This document shows, piece by piece, positions 1 through 7,569 of a stretch of DNA of 8,302 nucleotides; position 1 is the stretch's first letter; every line of letters begins with the position of its first letter. The stretch covers positions 1 to 8,302 of the forward strand of contig JBFJWU010000133.1 in NCBI GenBank assembly GCA_041623475.1, read 5' to 3'. The DNA is from JBFJWU01 sp041623475 [NCBI: bacterium]. Its GTDB lineage: Bacteria > J088. Under the pieces are notes generated by a model. That model was not told the DNA's origin, made no database searches, and saw only the letters and a program-made list of their open reading frames with translations. A program made the translations under genes and the position numbers.

Positions 1-816
1 GAACCGATTGGTATGAGCGGTATGCGGCTGGAAGCCAAGGTCTATATCGTTACCGCGGCTGTAACCAGCGCCCAGAACCTCGTCAAATGTGCGAACCGCA
101 CCGGTCTGCACGTGTCGGACATCGTCCTGCAGCAACTGGCCAGTGCCGAGGCGTGCTTGACACCGGACGAGAAAGAGCTGGGGGTTGCCCTGGTTGACAT
201 CGGCGGTGGCACCAGCGACATCGCGATCTTTACCGAAGGGGCACTGAAGTTCACATCCGTTATCAGCCTGGGCGGCAACCATTTCACAAATGACATTGCC
301 GTCGGTTTGCGGACGCCAATCCGCGAGGCCGAAAGAATCAAAAAGAAATGGGGCAACAGCCAGGTGGCCAGCGTCGAGGAAGACGAAATGCTGGAAGTCC
401 CATCGGTGGGCGGTCGCGAGCCGCGTCTGGTGCCGCGTCGCTTCCTGGCGCAGATCATCGAGCCACGCGCCGAGGAAATCGCCTGCCTGATCAAACAGGA
501 GCTGGATGACTCTGGCTACCGCGAACTGCTGGCCGGCGGGGTTGTCTTTACGGGCGGGACCTCGCAGCTGAACGGGCTGGTGGAAACGTGCGAGGAGATC
601 CTGGACCTGCCGTGCAGGCTGGGTGCACCGCGCAACGTCAAAGGCCTGGCCGACATTGTCAGCAGCCCCCAGTACTCGACCGGGGTCGGCCTGATGTTGT
701 ACGGACTGAAATATGACGGCGAACAGAAGTTCCGCATTCGCGAAAACAACCTGTTCGGCAAGATCAAGGACCGAATGACGGACTGGTTTGGCGAACTTGT
801 CGCTGCAATGTTTTGA
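1..816 (+). CDS. ftsA: Cell division protein FtsA, C-terminal part (5' end outside window)
   Basis: FtsA is the actin-like ATPase that tethers FtsZ to the cytoplasmic membrane and helps recruit the divisome. The frame is open from base 1 (codons E-P-I-G-M-S-G-M), so the gene began upstream. About 145 N-terminal residues of a typical roughly 415-residue FtsA are missing, and 271 remain. Visible landmarks are the [12 protein letters not shown] segment that opens the second half of FtsA, the phosphate-2 motif [16 protein letters not shown] at about fragment residues 61-76, and the adenosine-site motif [13 protein letters not shown] near 181-193. The last residues, [18 protein letters not shown], fit the amphipathic membrane-targeting helix that ends FtsA proteins. 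ftsZ follows after 94 bases on the same strand, the classic division-cluster order. The first ATG in the window (13) is internal, not the start. Identity is firm from the motifs and the neighbour. Confidence 0.95.
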
Positions 817-869
817 GATGCACGAACTGGACAGCCAACTGGACCTTACTTTTGACAACGAACCAACAT

Positions 870-887
870 ATTCCCGTTTGGGGGAAT
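870..887 (+). other. Small hairpin in ftsA-ftsZ spacer
   Basis: The ftsA-ftsZ spacer (817-910) holds a perfect 6-bp inverted repeat: ATTCCC at 870-875 and GGGAAT at 882-887, with a 6-base loop. It lies 12 bases before the ftsZ Shine-Dalgarno site, so it would sit in the leader of ftsZ mRNA. A role in ftsZ translation or mRNA processing is only a guess. A TTGACA at 852-857 looks like a -35 box, but no convincing -10 hexamer lies 16-18 bases downstream, so I do not call a promoter. Confidence 0.3.
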
Positions 888-910
888 CAATTGAATCACG
901 GAGGGAAACC

Positions 911-2056
911 ATGATTTACGAATTAGAAGAGCAGCGAACTCAAGCTGTTATCAAAGTAATCGGTGTCGGCGGCGGCGGTGGCAATGCCGTAGACACCATG
1001 ATCGAACGCGGTATCGACGGCGTCGAGTTCCTGGTGGCCAATACGGACATTCAGGCGCTGGAAACCAAGCTGGCGGGTACCAAGATCCAGATCGGATCTG
1101 AACACACCCGGGGGTTGGGTGCTGGTGCCAACCCCGAGGTCGGCAAGATCGCCGCGGACGAGGACCGGGAACGGATCCGCGAGGCGCTGGACGGTGCCGA
1201 CATGGTGTTTGTAACCGCCGGAATGGGCAAGGGTACCGGAACAGGTGCTGCACCCGTCATTGCCGAAATCGCCAAGGAAATCGGAGCCCTGACGATCGCG
1301 ATTGTAACCCGACCGTTCGCGTACGAAGGCCGCCAGCGGTTGCGCAACGCTGATTACGGCACCGAGCAGTTAATGAATGTTGCTGACACGTTGATCACCA
1401 TCCCCAATGACCGGCTGCTCAGCCTTGCACGCAAGGATATGGGGTACCGGGACGCGTTTAAACTGGCGGACCAGGTGCTGTACCAGTCGGTACGGGGCAT
1501 TTCGGACGTGATTACGATCCCCGGCCAGATCAACGTTGACTTTGCCGACGTGCGGACTGTCATGTCCAGCCGCGGAATGGCGGTAATGAGCAGCGGTGAG
1601 GCCGAAGGCGAGGGCAGGGCAATCGAGGCTGCCGAACGGGCAATTATGAGCCCGCTGCTCGAGGACGCCGAGATCGACGGTGCGACATCGGTGCTGGTGA
1701 ACATTACCTGTAACGAGAAACTCGGCCTCCACGAAGTCAACGAGGCCTGCACCTTTATCCAGGACAAGGTCCATGAAGAAGCGAATATCATCGTTGGTGT
1801 CGCCGAGGACCCGAAACTGGGTGAAAAGGTACGGATAACCGTCCTGGCGACCGGATTCGGATCCCAGGCCAAACACGGACGGCCAAGCCTGCGAATTGCA
1901 CAGCCGGCCGGACAGCAGACGATTACACAGGACCAGCCGGCAACCGGCAGTTCGACCCAGATGTCGAAATTGCACGACCAGTTGGGCAAGACACCTTACG
2001 ACGGTGACGAGTATGACATTCCCGCGTTTATCCGCGAAGGTCGCAGCCTGATGTAG
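911..2056 (+). CDS. ftsZ: Cell division protein FtsZ (tubulin-like GTPase)
   Basis: FtsZ polymerises with GTP into the division ring at midcell. I choose the ATG at 911 because GGAGGG (900-905) sits 5 bases before it. The protein then opens [20 protein letters not shown] as FtsZ should, giving 381 residues, a normal length. The longer frame from 788 would overlap ftsA and add 41 unrelated residues. Landmarks are [15 protein letters not shown] (17-30), ANTDIQAL (43-50), the nucleotide loop [12 protein letters not shown] (104-115), [11 protein letters not shown] (133-143), the catalytic T7 loop region [11 protein letters not shown] (205-215), and a C-terminal peptide [13 protein letters not shown] (366-378) that matches the FtsA-binding tail. 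The variable linker is short, about 45 residues. The loop is odd: K replaces the first glycine of GGGTGTG. The gene follows ftsA and ends in a strong terminator. Confidence 0.97.
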
Positions 2057-2523: not shown

Positions 2524-3396
2524 CTATTTCGCGGGCACAATCGGGGTCAGCAGGGGGTCCCATTTGTATTTGTTGTAGGTGTTGGTCTCGATGGCTTTGC
2601 GCAGGGCGGCGCCATCGATCAGGCTGGTTTCCAGGACGAATGCGCTGGCACCGTCAACGGGTTTGACGTCGGCTTTCATCAGGTCCAAGGTCGCAAACCA
2701 CGATTCGGGGCCTTCCTGCAGGTAGCGGGCTTCCGCCAGGAAAAGGTACCACAGCGCGAATACGCCTTCCTGCAGTGGTTTGGCGCGTTCCAGGTATTCC
2801 ATACCCTTGTCGATGTTGCCGACGCTGATGGGAAAGGGTGGGACCTTGATCAGCATCTTGGCCTGGGCGGTCAGGACCATGCCGTAGATATAGTTTGGAT
2901 CAATCTCTTCGGCAAAATCCAGCAGGCGCTGGAACTCGGGCAGGTTCTGGACCGTTTCCAGGATGCCGCGGCTCAACGCATCCAGACCGATATAGATGGC
3001 GCTCCAGAACGGGCCGACGACGGAATTCGGGCGGGCGTTCTTGAATTCGCCGGCCATGCGCAGGCCGATACGGGCGGTTCGGGCGCGGGGTTGGCCCAGC
3101 GGCACCATTCGCCACAGGTTGTACGTGTACATCATTGCCCATTCGGCGTACCTGGGATCACCGGTGGACTTGAATTGACGCCACATCCGTTCGACCACTG
3201 CCTGGGCGAATTGCTGGTCAAACAGTGCCGGGCGAATTTGTTCGTACAGGTGATCCAGTGGCCGCATCGGATCAAATGAATCGACGGGCAGGTCGGCGAC
3301 GCTGGATCGCGCGCGGGACGGCAATACAGCCTGGGCTGCTGCCGCACCGCTGGCCAGCAGTGCCGTCCGTCGCTTGAATGTCAGGTCCAGATCCAT
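2524..3396 (-). CDS. Tat-exported TatT-like helical protein (second of tandem pair)
   Basis: A 290-residue protein, probably exported. The N-terminus has a twin-arginine-like signal: FKRRTALL at 7-14, then a hydrophobic Ala-rich stretch to about residue 25. No lipobox cysteine is visible. The mature part looks all-helical, and landmarks shared with the upstream neighbour include RYAEWA (82-87), VVGPFW (126-131), LSRG (141-144), EIDPNYIYG (164-172), KVPPFPISVGNIDKG (184-198), FALWYLFLAEA (213-223) and YNKYKWDPLL (274-283). From memory, the pattern 'LdpsY-yG ... P-p--GgdpeKg---leKA' resembles the TatT family, periplasmic TPR-like T components associated with TRAP transporters, but no TRAP genes lie in the window, so this is tentative. 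The Shine-Dalgarno site before the ATG at 3396 is weak. The gene lies 83 bases downstream of its paralog and is probably co-transcribed with it. A 377-codon + strand frame overlapping it is a shadow. Confidence 0.8.
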   Translation of the reverse strand: MDLDLTFKRRTALLASGAAAAQAVLPSRARSSVADLPVDSFDPMRPLDHLYEQIRPALFDQQFAQAVVERMWRQFKSTGDPRYAEWAMMYTYNLWRMVPLGQPRARTARIGLRMAGEFKNARPNSVVGPFWSAIYIGLDALSRGILETVQNLPEFQRLLDFAEEIDPNYIYGMVLTAQAKMLIKVPPFPISVGNIDKGMEYLERAKPLQEGVFALWYLFLAEARYLQEGPESWFATLDLMKADVKPVDGASAFVLETSLIDGAALRKAIETNTYNKYKWDPLLTPIVPAK

Positions 3397-3479: not shown

Positions 3480-4391
3480 CTATTTCCGGATCCCGCACTG
3501 GCCGGGGAACGGGATTTCCCGGCCGCGCAGTTCTTCGATTGATTCCAGCAACGGGTCGTACGTGTATTTGTTGTACCGGCCGTCGTCCAGGGCCTTGGCT
3601 AACTTTTCGGCCATGAACATGGACACCTCGTACACAAATGCTGTGACCAGATTGTCCGGGCAGACTTCGGATAATCTTGCCAATGCGTCACGGGCGGCCG
3701 TCTCACCGGCACGTTGGTGTTCGGCTTCGGCCAGCACCAGGTACCACATCGCAAACCTGCCCTGCTGGTATTGCCGAGCCTTTTCCAGCTCGGCCAGGCC
3801 CTTGTCCAGGTCGCCGGTACTCATCGGAAACGGGGGCAGCTTGATGTACATCTTGGCGCGGACCATATGGACAGAACCGTAATAATAGGACGAATCGATC
3901 TCGGACGCGCGATCCAGTTTGGCAGACAATGTCGGGATCATATTGATCGAGTTCAACGGGCCGCGGCTGATGCCCTCGCTGCCGAAAAACGTTGCCAGCC
4001 AGTACGGACCCACGACTTCGTGCGGATGGTTGTTTTCATAGATCTTGGACAGTTTCTGGCCGATCTGGGCGGCCTGGATCCGGGGTTTTCCGGGCGGTAA
4101 CGTCTGCCACCAGAACAACAGGTAGATCAGGGCCCATTCACCATATCGCTTGATGCCATCCCGCTTGTAACGTCCCCACAGGGTCAGGGCCACCTGGAAC
4201 ACGTCGTCGGGTACCTGGAACCTGTTCCTCAAGCGGTGGTAATTACCGGCAATCTGCTGCCTGGGGTCCAGTTCGTCCAGCGATGGCTGATTGGCGTCCA
4301 GGCGCACGGGTGTCAACGCGCCCAGGCCAGCCAATGTTGCCAGTTTTGCCAGCGTGCGCCGCTGCAATGGTTGAGTACTGCGTCTTTTCAT
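3480..4391 (-). CDS. Tat-exported TatT-like helical protein (first of tandem pair)
   Basis: A 303-residue protein from the ATG at 4391. The frame stays open to an ATG at 4487, but that would bury the export signal behind 32 charged, Pro-rich residues, so the later start is preferred although its ribosome site is weak. The signal peptide carries QRRTLAKLATLAGLGALTP (10-28), close to the Tat consensus RRxFLK. The helical body includes RYGEWALIY (82-90), VVGPYW (126-131), ISRG (141-144), EIDSSYYYGS (164-173), KLPPFPMSTGDLDKG (184-198), FAMWYLVLAEA (213-223) and YNKYTYDPLL (273-282). Residues 71-230 align without gaps to the same numbers of the downstream paralog, with 70 of 160 identical by hand count. 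The fold resembles TatT, the TPR-like partner of some TRAP uptake systems, but the ligand is unknown. It is the promoter-proximal gene of the pair and is divergent from the ribosomal operon. Confidence 0.8.
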   Translation of the reverse strand: MKRRSTQPLQRRTLAKLATLAGLGALTPVRLDANQPSLDELDPRQQIAGNYHRLRNRFQVPDDVFQVALTLWGRYKRDGIKRYGEWALIYLLFWWQTLPPGKPRIQAAQIGQKLSKIYENNHPHEVVGPYWLATFFGSEGISRGPLNSINMIPTLSAKLDRASEIDSSYYYGSVHMVRAKMYIKLPPFPMSTGDLDKGLAELEKARQYQQGRFAMWYLVLAEAEHQRAGETAARDALARLSEVCPDNLVTAFVYEVSMFMAEKLAKALDDGRYNKYTYDPLLESIEELRGREIPFPGQCGIRK

Positions 4392-4447
4392 CTTGACTGG
4401 TGTAGTGCGGGTGTCCCTTGCCCGGCGGCACGCAGGCGGTGTTTTCG

Positions 4448-4476
4448 TTGCGCGGGCCAGGGGTTCAGGATACACT
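4448..4476 (+). promoter_or_regulatory. Candidate sigma-70-type promoter of the ribosomal operon
   Basis: The 167-base space between the divergent genes (4392-4558) must hold two promoters. For the + strand the best pair I see is TTGCGC (4448-4453) and TACACT (4471-4476) with a 17-base spacer. It would start transcription near 4483, just before the candidate S6:S18 leader structure. Matches to consensus are only 3 of 6 and 4 of 6. On the minus strand TATCCT, overlapping the same bases, could act as -10 for the secreted-protein genes, with a weak -35. Both are tentative. Confidence 0.25.
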
Positions 4477-4488
4477 GACAAGTGCATT

Positions 4489-4540: not shown

Positions 4541-4558
4541 GTCCAAGAGGAGGGCCAC

Positions 4559-5029
4559 ATGAATACGTACGAGACCGCCCTGGTATTGGCGGATTCCCTT
4601 GGCCAGGATGACATTGACGAGTTCGTCAAAAAAGTCCAGGCACTTATCGAAAAGAACGACGGCAAGCTGGTCGAAACGACTCCCTGGGGTCGCAAGCGAT
4701 TGGCCTATGAAGTTGCCGGCACGCGCCACGCCCATTTTGTGTTCCTGAAAATCGAGGGACCGGGATCGATTGTCCATGTGCTGGATGCCGCATTGCGCAT
4801 CGAAAAACCCGTCATTCGATTCCAGACTTTCATTTATGAGGGCGACCCGGCCGAGGGCGACCTGCATTTCAAGAATTACGAAATGCTGTTGGGTTATATC
4901 ACGGACCGTGGCAAGATTCGCCCACGGCGGACGACGCGCATGAGCGCTCCGAAACAGCGCCAACTGGCTAGTGCGATCAAGCGTGCCCGAATGCTGGCAC
5001 TGCTGCCCTACACAACGATGGGCAGTTGA
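4559..5029 (+). CDS. rpsF-rpsR: Ribosomal protein S6-S18 fusion (bS6-bS18)
   Basis: S6 and S18 form a heterodimer on the 30S platform, touching the central domain of 16S rRNA. Here one 156-residue frame encodes both. GAGGAGGG (4547-4554) lies 4 bases before the ATG. Residues 1 to about 97 are S6: [10 protein letters not shown] start, [12 protein letters not shown] (41-52), HFVFLKIEG (59-67), and [14 protein letters not shown] (78-91) at the end of the fold. After the linker GDPAEG come residues 101-156, which are S18: [17 protein letters not shown] (104-120), then [20 protein letters not shown] (133-152). This part aligns gaplessly with the last 56 residues of E. coli S18, about half identical from memory. 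The roughly 19-residue basic N-terminus of S18 and the acidic S6 tail are missing. The usual RITG turn reads RTTR. No stop, start or ribosome site separates the halves. rplI follows after 46 bases, as it follows rpsR elsewhere. Confidence 0.93.
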
Positions 5030-5075
5030 CGGCCGAAATTTCCAGGACCCACAGGGTCGGACCAGGAGAGCAATT

Positions 5076-5705
5076 GTGAAATTGATATTGATTGACCAAG
5101 TTGATAACCTCGGGCTTCCCGGCGACGTTGTAACCGTCAAGGACGGATATGCCCGGAATTACCTGATTCCACATGGCAAGGCGCTCAAGGCCACCGACGG
5201 CAACGTCGAGGAGATGGAGCACCAGAAACGTATCGCAGACAGCCGTCGCAAGAAGCTGATTGAGGACCTGAGTGTTCGCCGCGATACGATCAATGGCAGC
5301 AGTGTGTCATTTACGGAAAACGTTACCGATGGGGGTCGGCTGTATGGCTCGATTACATCGCGCCGCGTTGCCGACGCACTGCGCGAGACCTTTCCCGACG
5401 TTAAAAACGGATGGGTAGACCTGCCAGAGCCGATCAAAGAGCCCGGTGAATTCCAGATCGCCCTGAATATGGCGCCTGACGTGACGGCCACCGTCACGGT
5501 GACAGTAATCGCCGATGCCGTCGTCGAGCCCGAGCCTGAAGCCGACGACGTCGACGAAGATGTCATTGCGGACGGTGACGAGGCCGAGACCGACGAGGCC
5601 GCTGAGGGCGACGATCCAGTCGACAGTGACGAGGATGCCCCCGCCGCTGATGAAACGGCATCAGAACCCGAAACCGACGGCGATCAGGATCAGGACGAAA
5701 GCTGA
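5076..5705 (+). CDS. rplI: Ribosomal protein L9 (bL9) with long acidic tail
   Basis: L9 is a two-domain 50S protein that binds 23S rRNA near the L1 stalk base and helps maintain reading frame. The start is GTG at 5076, preceded by AGGAGAG (5064-5070); from there the protein reads (M)KLILIDQVDNLG, typical of L9. An in-frame ATG at 4971 lies inside the upstream gene and is not used. The L9 signature GDVVTVKDGYARNYLIPHGKA spans about 16-36, the connecting helix 43-68, and the C-terminal domain ends near residue 148, the normal family length. Residues 149-209 are an extra tail with 30 Asp/Glu in 61 and no Lys or Arg. The tail is in frame with no sign of a frameshift. The gene sits 46 bases after the S6-S18 gene and 31 before glmS, probably co-transcribed. 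Confidence 0.95.
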   Translation: MKLILIDQVDNLGLPGDVVTVKDGYARNYLIPHGKALKATDGNVEEMEHQKRIADSRRKKLIEDLSVRRDTINGSSVSFTENVTDGGRLYGSITSRRVADALRETFPDVKNGWVDLPEPIKEPGEFQIALNMAPDVTATVTVTVIADAVVEPEPEADDVDEDVIADGDEAETDEAAEGDDPVDSDEDAPAADETASEPETDGDQDQDES

Positions 5706-5736: not shown

Positions 5737-7569
5737 ATGTGCGGCATTGTTGGCTATACCGGTCCCGGGCAATCCACCGACGTCCTGATTGACGGGCTGC
5801 GGCGGCTTGAGTACCGCGGGTATGACTCGGCCGGGGTGGCCATTCACACGCCGGACGGCCTTGAGATATTTCGTAAAAAAGGGCGCATCAAGGACCTGAT
5901 CGGGGTCCTGCCCAATCCTGCGCCCGAATCCAGCTGCGGAATCGGGCATACCCGCTGGGCCACCCACGGTCGACCCAGCGAAACCAATGCCCATCCCCAC
6001 CGCGTGGGGCAGGTCGTCGTTGTTCACAACGGTATCATCGAAAACCACGTCGCCCTGCGGCAGGAACTGGAAGCATCCGGGTCTGAGTTCCAGTCCGAGA
6101 CCGACACCGAAATTTTTGCCCATTTGCTGGAGGGTGCCCGCCAGGCCGCTGGCGAGTTGAATCCCGAGGCCGTTCGCCAGGTTCTGGGTCGAATCGAAGG
6201 CAGTTACGGACTGGGCATCATTGTCGAAAGCCAGCCAGACCAGGTGCTGTTTGCCCGAAAGGGCAGCCCCCTGATTGTTGGACTGGGCTCTGGCGAAAAT
6301 TTCATCGCCTCGGATATCGCCGCGATCCTGTCCTATACGCGTGAAATGGTTTTATTGAATGACGGGGATGTCGGGGTCATTACGCCAGGAACGGTGACCA
6401 TCCTGGACGAGGACGGCAAGGCCGCCGAACGCCCGCCACGTCAGGTTTCCTGGGATCCACTGATGGCAGAAAAAGGCGGTTTCCCGCATTTCATGCTCAA
6501 GGAGATCCATGACCAGCCCCGTGCGATCAGCGACACAATGGCCGGTCGAATCGGACCCGATGAGGGCCGCGTCTATCTTGAAGGTGAGTTCCTGGGCCAG
6601 GACAAGGTCAAATCCGCGTCCCGTATCGTGTTCCTGGCATGCGGGACAAGCTATAACGCGGGGCTCGTGGCCAGTTACGAGTATGAACGGACGCTGCGGA
6701 TACCCGTCCGGGTCGAGTATGCCAGCGAGTTTCGCTATCGTGACCCGGTCCTGGGCGACAACGACATCGTTATTGCGATCTCGCAGAGCGGCGAAACAGC
6801 AGATACGCTGGCGGCGGTAGAGGTTGCCCGCGAGGCCGGTGTTCCGGTTGTTGCAATTTGCAACGTCGTTGATTCATCGCTGGCCAGAAACAGCGATTTT
6901 GTGATGTATACCCATGCCGGGCCGGAAATCAGCGTCGCCAGTACCAAGGCGTTTGTGACCCAACTGGTGTCGCTGCAACTGGTATTGGTCCATATGGCCC
7001 AGATCCGCGGCAATCTGGATACCGCAGGTGTCCGGGAATGGCTGCAGGAACTCAGCCGTTTGCCAGCTGCCGCGGCACGGACTCTGAAATTACGCGAGGA
7101 CATCCGCCGGATCGCAAAAAAATATGCTTACGCAGAAAACATGCTGTACCTGGGGCGAGATGTTCATTTCCCGCTTGCGCTTGAAGGCGCACTGAAACTG
7201 AAGGAAATCAGTTATATCCACGCCGAGGCGTATCCAGCCGGTGAAATGAAGCACGGCCCGATCGCTTTGGTGGACAAGGATATGCCGGTTTTTATCATCG
7301 TCCACGACAGTTCTGTTCGTGGCAAGGTCTTGTCCAACATGGCCGAAATTCGTGCCCGTGACGGCAGGGTCATCGCCCTGACGCTGCCGGGTGATGACGA
7401 GGTGGAAGAGGCGGCTGATTCGGCCATTGCGGTCGAGTCCGTCGGCCCGCGCGTGGATCCGATTCTGCTGACGATTCCATTGCAGTTGTTTGCGTACCAG
7501 ATCGCGGTCCATCGGGGTACCGATGTTGACCAGCCCCGAAACCTGGCCAAAAGCGTCACCGTAGAATAG
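5737..7569 (+). CDS. glmS: Glutamine--fructose-6-phosphate aminotransferase (GlmS)
   Basis: GlmS makes glucosamine-6-phosphate from fructose-6-phosphate and glutamine, the first step toward UDP-GlcNAc for peptidoglycan and lipopolysaccharide. The 610 residues match the family length. The start MCGIVGY exposes Cys2, the glutaminase nucleophile after Met removal. The N-terminal glutaminase domain shows HTRWATHGRPSETNAHPH (71-88), HNGIIENH (97-104) and ETDTE (121-125). The first SIS domain has CGTSYNAG (302-309), SQSGETADTL (349-358) and VASTKAFVTQL (400-410). The second has EGALKLKEISYIHAEAYPAG (483-502) and EMKHGPIALV (503-512). The end DQPRNLAKSVTVE (598-610) is the conserved tail carrying the catalytic Lys (605). 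A modest GGATGGGA (5721-5728) precedes the ATG. The 31-base gap after rplI leaves no room for a glmS ribozyme. All catalytic landmarks are present. Confidence 0.97.
   Translation: MCGIVGYTGPGQSTDVLIDGLRRLEYRGYDSAGVAIHTPDGLEIFRKKGRIKDLIGVLPNPAPESSCGIGHTRWATHGRPSETNAHPHRVGQVVVVHNGIIENHVALRQELEASGSEFQSETDTEIFAHLLEGARQAAGELNPEAVRQVLGRIEGSYGLGIIVESQPDQVLFARKGSPLIVGLGSGENFIASDIAAILSYTREMVLLNDGDVGVITPGTVTILDEDGKAAERPPRQVSWDPLMAEKGGFPHFMLKEIHDQPRAISDTMAGRIGPDEGRVYLEGEFLGQDKVKSASRIVFLACGTSYNAGLVASYEYERTLRIPVRVEYASEFRYRDPVLGDNDIVIAISQSGETADTLAAVEVAREAGVPVVAICNVVDSSLARNSDFVMYTHAGPEISVASTKAFVTQLVSLQLVLVHMAQIRGNLDTAGVREWLQELSRLPAAAARTLKLREDIRRIAKKYAYAENMLYLGRDVHFPLALEGALKLKEISYIHAEAYPAGEMKHGPIALVDKDMPVFIIVHDSSVRGKVLSNMAEIRARDGRVIALTLPGDDEVEEAADSAIAVESVGPRVDPILLTIPLQLFAYQIAVHRGTDVDQPRNLAKSVTVE

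What the first reader, a model, noticed from the sequence alone, without database searches (positions are those of the whole stretch)
4559..5029. S6 and S18 fused into one ribosomal polypeptide
One uninterrupted frame carries a full S6 fold (1 to about 97), a linker of about six residues, and an S18 domain (101-156) that aligns gaplessly with the last 56 residues of E. coli S18 as remembered. No stop, start codon or ribosome site separates them. S6 and S18 are obligate partners on the 30S platform, so a covalent heterodimer would fix their 1:1 ratio and change assembly order. I know of no well-studied example, though rare fused architectures may already be listed in domain databases.
Basis: partly seen in the sequence, partly recalled or inferred. 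Interest (0 to 1): 0.92.

Follow-up and report, generated by a model that had tools for sequence, protein, structure and literature searches.

The report
Two ribosomal proteins joined in one
One bacterial gene encodes two partner proteins of the small ribosomal subunit, S6 and S18, as a single chain; the reading frame is clear and looks functional, but it rests on one sequence from an unplaced organism and no second example turned up.

Summary
Bases 4559-5029 (+) are one uninterrupted 156-codon frame with a complete S6 domain (PF01250, residues 3-91, E 8.6e-21) and a nearly complete S18 domain (PF01084, residues 102-149, E 1.4e-18), in the usual place before rplI. The join drops the S6 tail and the basic, Cys-bearing S18 N-terminus but keeps the S18 residues known to touch 16S rRNA. 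AlphaFold2 gave one compact, confident model (pTM 0.85), but its other four models and a repeat (pTM 0.67) were weaker. Of 59 fetched loci with both genes recognised, none has them in one open frame; in 7 a single in-frame TAA separates them. Five searches of distantly related genomes gave no fused row. The window's own lineage was not reached and its genome is not held, so a second rpsR or an assembly deletion cannot be excluded. Nine paper searches listed no S6-S18 fusion. Best reading: a real gene fusion that makes S6 and S18 as a tethered pair, a new variant of a known kind. Key tests: reads across 4830-4865 and a search of the source genome for rpsR.

The parts
4559..5029 (+). fused S6-S18 reading frame, 156 aa, calculated 17.7 kDa, pI 9.5
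4565..4831 (+). S6 domain (PF01250), residues 3-91
   Evidence: S6 fold matched
4832..4861 (+). join, residues 92-101
   Evidence: from the Pfam limits; sequence
4862..5026 (+). S18 domain (PF01084 match 102-149) and C-terminus, residues 102-156; native N-terminal basic/Cys segment absent
4838..4862 (+). 10-bp direct repeat GAGGGCGACC at 4838-4847 and 4853-4862 (period 15, in frame), at the join; possible rearrangement scar
   Evidence: one of two 10-mer pairs starting within 30 bp of each other in the window
4549..4553 (+). Shine-Dalgarno-like GGAGG 5 nt before the fusion's ATG
   Evidence: sequence
5076..5705 (+). rplI (L9), GTG start, AGGAG at 5064; next gene in the operon

Best explanation
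This is a real gene fusion of rpsF and rpsR. An in-frame loss of the segment between the S6 core and the S18 core (S6 tail codons, stop, intergenic DNA, S18 start and first ~19 codons) left both rRNA/partner-binding cores and joined them by a short linker. The product folds as a tethered S6:S18 pair, binds the 16S platform as the normal heterodimer does, and so forces 1:1 supply and removes the bimolecular dimerisation step. Shown: frame, domains, operon context, missing segments, kept contact residues. Inferred: expression, ribosome entry, assembly effect, and the deletion origin.
For: Both domains pass Pfam and NCBIfam thresholds in one frame. The S18 part starts at the equivalent of residue 20; several solved S18 chains listed hold only 52-57 residues and match from there (e.g. 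2ykr_R, 55), although others hold 65 or more, so the lost segment is one often left out of structures (my inference). In 56 rows (55 places) with S6 and S18 side by side, 167-930 nt lie between the reference codons against 42 in the window, consistent with loss of the material between the cores. Joining is within easy reach: in 7 of 59 loci one in-frame TAA alone parts the two genes. S18 residues K60, R61, R63 (rRNA contacts, PMC4647458 section 8) map to K141, R142, R144; interface Y23/K24 to F104/K105; S6 R85 to R87 and the loop RQLAYP to KRLAYE. AF2 best model: pLDDT 93.8, pTM 0.85. The S6 half matches S6 chains at Z 14.6-17.3 in the 50 rows shown. S6 and S18 dimerise before joining the rRNA-S15 complex (PMC4647458 passage). 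The next genes, rplI and glmS, are whole.
Against: No second example: one window only. 0 of 59 loci with both genes recognised are fused, and no displayed row is; one search gave one relative, with separate genes. None of these is close kin (best S6 identity 41%; GlmS at most 51% in the rows shown). An assembly deletion falls in frame one time in three. In the AF2 runs only 1 of 10 models was confident as a whole: run 1 means 93.8, 74.1, 69.9, 69.5, 68.5; run 2 best 80.4, pTM 0.67, residues 96-101 under pLDDT 50. The fold searches did not test the S18 half. [quoted passage not shown] No promoter-like site or Rfam match upstream.
Confidence: 0.6

Rival explanations
1. Assembly artefact: the contig lost the segment between two separate genes (for instance by collapse over short or low-complexity repeats), so the fusion does not exist in the cell.
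For: Single contig; a 10-bp direct repeat sits at the join, one of only two such close pairs in the window; some S6 tails in relatives are low-complexity (e.g. L056, L061); no fetched relative shares the fusion (0 of 59).
Against: Both domain cores are kept whole and the frame is intact, which a random deletion would seldom give (inference); two copies of the repeat are present, not one as a simple collapse between repeats would leave; rplI and glmS next door are whole.
Confidence: 0.25
2. The fusion is real but is not the only S18: a separate complete rpsR elsewhere supplies the ribosome, and the fused gene acts mainly as S6 or as a special-purpose variant (as with paired C+/C- S18 copies).
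For: Own genome not held, so a second rpsR is untested. C+/C- bS18 pairs exist in Mycobacterium smegmatis (PMC9976891 passage). The fused S18 lacks the N-terminal segment.
Against: It sits in the standard rpsF-rpsR-rplI place; nearly every genome gave just two matches, one for each half.
Confidence: 0.1
3. The fused chain is made and then cut in the linker to give two ordinary proteins, as a fused molybdopterin synthase (MoaX) is cut to become active.
For: Precedent for a fused protein needing cleavage (PMC4326299, title and start of abstract in a search listing). Linker of low confidence in the second model.
Confidence: 0.05

Closest known systems
bS6 (rpsF, PF01250/TIGR00166)
   Same: complete domain, start site, operon position
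   Different: no C-terminal tail and no stop; the chain continues into S18
bS18 (rpsR, PF01084/TIGR00165)
   Same: core from residue ~20 to the end, with K60/R61/R63 equivalents
   Different: lacks its own start and the N-terminal basic, Cys-bearing segment seen in relatives
S6:S18 heterodimer of the 30S platform (1g1x and 30S structures)
   Same: the same two partners 1:1; the S6 half matches 1g1x_A (Z 14.9)
   Different: normally two chains from two genes; here one chain
rpsF-rpsR pairs parted by one in-frame TAA (L039, L043, L046, L052, L054, L057, L093)
   Same: both genes adjacent in one frame, one stop-codon change away from a fusion
   Different: stop present, S6 tail and S18 N-terminus kept
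Other ribosomal protein fusions: ubiquitin-RPS27a (PMC10457151, start of abstract in a listing) and the bifunctional signalling protein/L9 model NF011110 (a name listed)
   Same: a ribosomal protein encoded in one frame with another domain
   Different: those join a ribosomal protein to a non-ribosomal partner; here two neighbouring ribosomal proteins are joined

Membership tests
bS6 (PF01250) | domain above curated cut-off, over the whole profile | tested here: met
   74.4 bits against 27, profile 1-89/90; TIGR00166 passed
bS6 (PF01250) | S6 fold | tested here: met
   model residues from 1 to about 92-109 matched to S6 chains, Z 14.6-17.3, rmsd 1.2-3.2 in the 50 rows shown
bS18 (PF01084) | domain above curated cut-off | tested here: met
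   67.2 bits against 21, profile 5-52/52; TIGR00165 passed, profile 19-68/70
bS18 (PF01084) | N-terminal basic, Cys-bearing segment (FRRRKxC type) | tested here: not met
   seen in the full-length S18 rows (L018, L029 and L032 were cut short by my choice of start, and the L050 row is not S18); absent here, no Cys in the protein
bS18 (PF01084) | residues contacting 16S C719/C720 (K60, R63) | tested here: met
   K141, R144
S6:S18 heterodimer | interface residues (S18 Y23/K24; S6 loop RQLAYP and R85) | tested here: inconclusive
   F104/K105; KRLAYE; R87: partly conserved
S6:S18 heterodimer | the two halves pack as in the 30S subunit | tested here: inconclusive
rpsF-rpsR-rplI operon | rplI directly downstream | tested here: met
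   L9 at 5076-5705
rpsF-leader autoregulation | conserved S6:S18-binding leader RNA upstream | tested here: inconclusive
   no Rfam match up to E 1 in the window; leader fold not better than shuffles (z 1.24)
sole source of S18 | no other rpsR in the genome | not testable with these tools
   own genome not held

The most novel reading that the evidence does not exclude
In an unplaced bacterial lineage all S6 and S18 come from one covalent chain, so the 30S platform is assembled from a pre-joined pair and lacks the S18 N-terminal segment and S6 tail. Platform assembly order, feedback control of the operon, and the surroundings of the 16S 3' tail would then differ from all studied bacteria.
Probability: 0.4. 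Interest if true: 0.7.

Novelty: new variant of a known kind. Interest (0 to 1): 0.58.

Why it matters
If real, nature has done the experiment of tethering two ribosomal proteins that normally pair before binding rRNA. It would test whether S6:S18 dimerisation is a limiting or regulated step, show that the S18 N-terminus and S6 tail are dispensable in some ribosomes, and offer a ready-made single-chain heterodimer for assembly and structural work. In Bacteroidia, bS21, bS18 and bS6 form the pocket that holds the 16S 3' tail (PMC9976891, passages), so changes at this spot may bear on translation initiation.

Tried and rejected
Missed frameshift: the other two frames across 4791-4930 show no FRRRKxC-like S18 N-terminus, so a pair of compensating frameshifts does not explain the join.

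Rows that looked like fusions in other genomes. G397 matched query 3-126, but its locus L037 has S6 and S18 in separate open frames. In some searches several S6 and S18 rows of one genome bear the same open-frame length (G284 226, G330 203, G242 206), which I had at first overlooked; read out, these (L043, L052, L093) hold S6 and S18 in one frame parted by one TAA, so that column reads through the stop. G686 (L057) and G302 (L046) are of the same kind; G480 (L056), G490 (L094), G350 (L049, L096), G257 (L048) and G206 (L050) hold separate genes; of G269 (L095) only S18 was recognised. L049 and L096 are one place, so 59 loci are 58 places. A narrower form of the same patterns gave 0 in 92 loci.

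Taxonomy: GlmS of the window is at most 51% identical in the rows shown from 200 genomes of the phylum of the one named relative (199 with a match; list cut). In a 33-row tree it sits on a long end branch (1.65), grouped 98/98 with 12 rows, which the tool warns is unsure for long rows; one other row (L078) I translated in a wrong frame. FtsZ gave no close kin (about 50-54% in the 8 of 115 plasmid records shown), and the plasmid DNA search no place over 80% of the query. The neighbouring TAtT-like ORF found nothing in 398 genomes at E 1e-8. For some searches the tool warns that an empty answer without a positive shows nothing. The lineage is therefore unplaced, and the negative searches speak only for distant kin. 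The searched sets overlap; a distinct total was not computed. In one search the match list was cut, but it is ordered by E-value and its best row covers S6 alone. Searches used strict E limits (1e-11, 1e-18, 1e-14), so a very divergent fusion could be missed. Plasmids: 67 records matched, 19 with at least 80% of the query in one place; of the 15 rows shown 12 are of these, and each of the 15 is two pieces. Phages: 25 records, 7 with at least 80%; 10 rows shown, each two pieces. Viral contigs: 4 stretches matched a pattern, none encodes a relative.

Fold searches list S6-like chains; no S18 chain appears in the rows shown, which shows nothing against S18 because one domain can fill the list. 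The first alignment A1 laid S6 tails over S18 and was not folded.

Papers (open-licence PMC only): nine searches, 13, 19, 20, 40, 59, 63, 68, 69 and 75, listed no S6-S18 fusion among the titles and abstract starts shown; two returned no paper at all, 68 showed 10 of 276 and 75 showed 8 of 1,376; 39 was too broad to tell. Seen: PMC4647458 section 8 and passages, PMC9976891 passages; others as search listings only.

Full report
What is there. Window 4559-5029 (+) is one open frame of 156 codons with no internal stop. hmmscan finds Ribosomal_S6 at residues 3-91 (E 8.6e-21, profile 1-89 of 90) and Ribosomal_S18 at 102-149 (E 1.4e-18, profile 5-52 of 52); the NCBIfam equivalog models for S6 and S18 both pass their cut-offs. 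Two curated domains in one frame at these scores are not chance. A GGAGG lies 5 nt before the ATG, and rplI follows at 5076 with its own AGGAG. Around it are ftsA (cut by the window's start), ftsZ, two ORFs on the other strand of which the larger matches TAtT and both weakly match BstC, glmS, and a uvrD-type helicase (cut by the window's end).

What was lost at the join. In relatives S6 carries a tail beyond its core and S18 starts with a basic, Cys-bearing segment. Here the S6 match ends at residue 91 and S18 begins at the equivalent of residue 20. In 56 rows (55 places, since L001 and L002 are one) with S6 and S18 side by side, the distance between the codons matching residues 88 and 102 is 167-930 nt; in the window it is 42; the two share a frame in 18 of those 56 rows. 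At the join lies a 10-bp direct repeat with period 15, in frame; only one other such close pair exists in the 8.3-kb window. That may be the scar of the event, or a hint of an assembly problem.

What was kept. By the alignments and the residues named in PMC4647458 section 8, the S18 contacts to 16S rRNA (K60, R61, R63) are K141, R142, R144; the S18 interface pair Y23/K24 is F104/K105; S6 R85 is R87, and the S6 loop RQLAYP is KRLAYE (residues listed; the paper's S6 numbers run one below the chain's). The same paper says S6 and S18 form a heterodimer before they join the rRNA-S15 complex. It also says that an N-terminal portion of S18 contacts S6, part of which may be missing here.

Structure. 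AlphaFold2 on alignment A3 gave pLDDT 93.8 and pTM 0.85, the join included, but the other four models had means of 68.5-74.1. A repeat on A2, where a few S6 residues were laid against the linker and the S18 end, gave 80.4 and pTM 0.67 with a loose linker. Secondary structure was nearly the same in both. The S6 half matches S6 chains at Z 14.6-17.3 in the 50 rows shown; for some chains (7k00_F, 5mdv_k, 9h90_f) the aligned range ends at model residue 106-109, which would fit a native S6 tail that runs near the linker, though only first and last residues are told. The S18 half was not tested by these lists. I take the fold as compatible with a tethered heterodimer, not as proof of it.

Relatives. 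Genome contigs gave one relative, with separate genes. In genomes of the same phylum as that relative: 48 of one class (42 with a match), 398 across the phylum (386 with a match), 369 of a second class (41 at E 1e-11), 385 of a third (1 at E 1e-18), 78 of a fourth (0 at E 1e-14). The sets overlap. No displayed row is a fusion; those that looked like one were read (see Tried and rejected). In a direct check of 96 fetched loci and the window, 59 loci hold both signatures: none in one open frame, 7 in one frame parted by a single TAA (L039, L043, L046, L052, L054, L057, L093), 52 otherwise apart; the window is the only sequence with both in one frame without a stop. So the two genes are often one point mutation or one small deletion away from fusion, yet in this sample they stay apart. 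Plasmids and phages show two pieces in every row displayed, and viral contigs gave no relative. No close relative was examined: best S6 identity is 41%, GlmS at most 51% in the rows shown, and GlmS sits on a long branch. The absence elsewhere says the fusion is not common, not that it is false.

Known or not. Nine paper searches listed no natural S6-S18 fusion; two of them returned nothing and two showed only part of their hits, and only open-licence PMC papers are held. Databases of domain architectures were not available, so unremarked examples may exist there.

Verdict. A real fusion is more likely than not, because both cores, the frame, the start site and the operon place are all intact. 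It remains a single, uncorroborated sequence. Whether it is the only S18, and whether ribosomes contain it, cannot be answered from here.

Noticed in passing
L039, L043, L046, L052, L054, L057, L093: In these seven loci S6 and S18 lie in one frame and are parted by a single in-frame TAA, so stop readthrough or one mutation would give a longer S6-S18 fusion.
   Followed up: partly
window 2524-3396 and 3480-4487 (-): Two tandem paralogous ORFs (38% identical over 282 columns), the larger one matching TAtT (TRAP transporter T-component) and both weakly matching BstC; the larger found nothing in 398 genomes at E 1e-8.
   Followed up: partly
L064 775-1425 (+): Two S6-like domains in one frame joined over a run of unknown residues: scaffold gap artefact or an S6-S6 duplication.
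   Followed up: no
window 5076-5705 (+): L9 carries an acidic C-terminal tail of about 60 residues beyond its Pfam domains, with its own 10-bp close repeat at 5577/5592.
   Followed up: no
L015-L034 (class of G170): 682-930 nt lie between the S6 and S18 reference codons in the rows measured, room for another gene between, and most of the S18 rows there have a CxFC pair.
   Followed up: no
window 788-2056 and 5737-7569 (+): FtsZ and GlmS have no close kin in what was searched (FtsZ about 50-54% and GlmS at most 51% in the rows shown), so the source lineage is deep or fast-evolving.
   Followed up: partly
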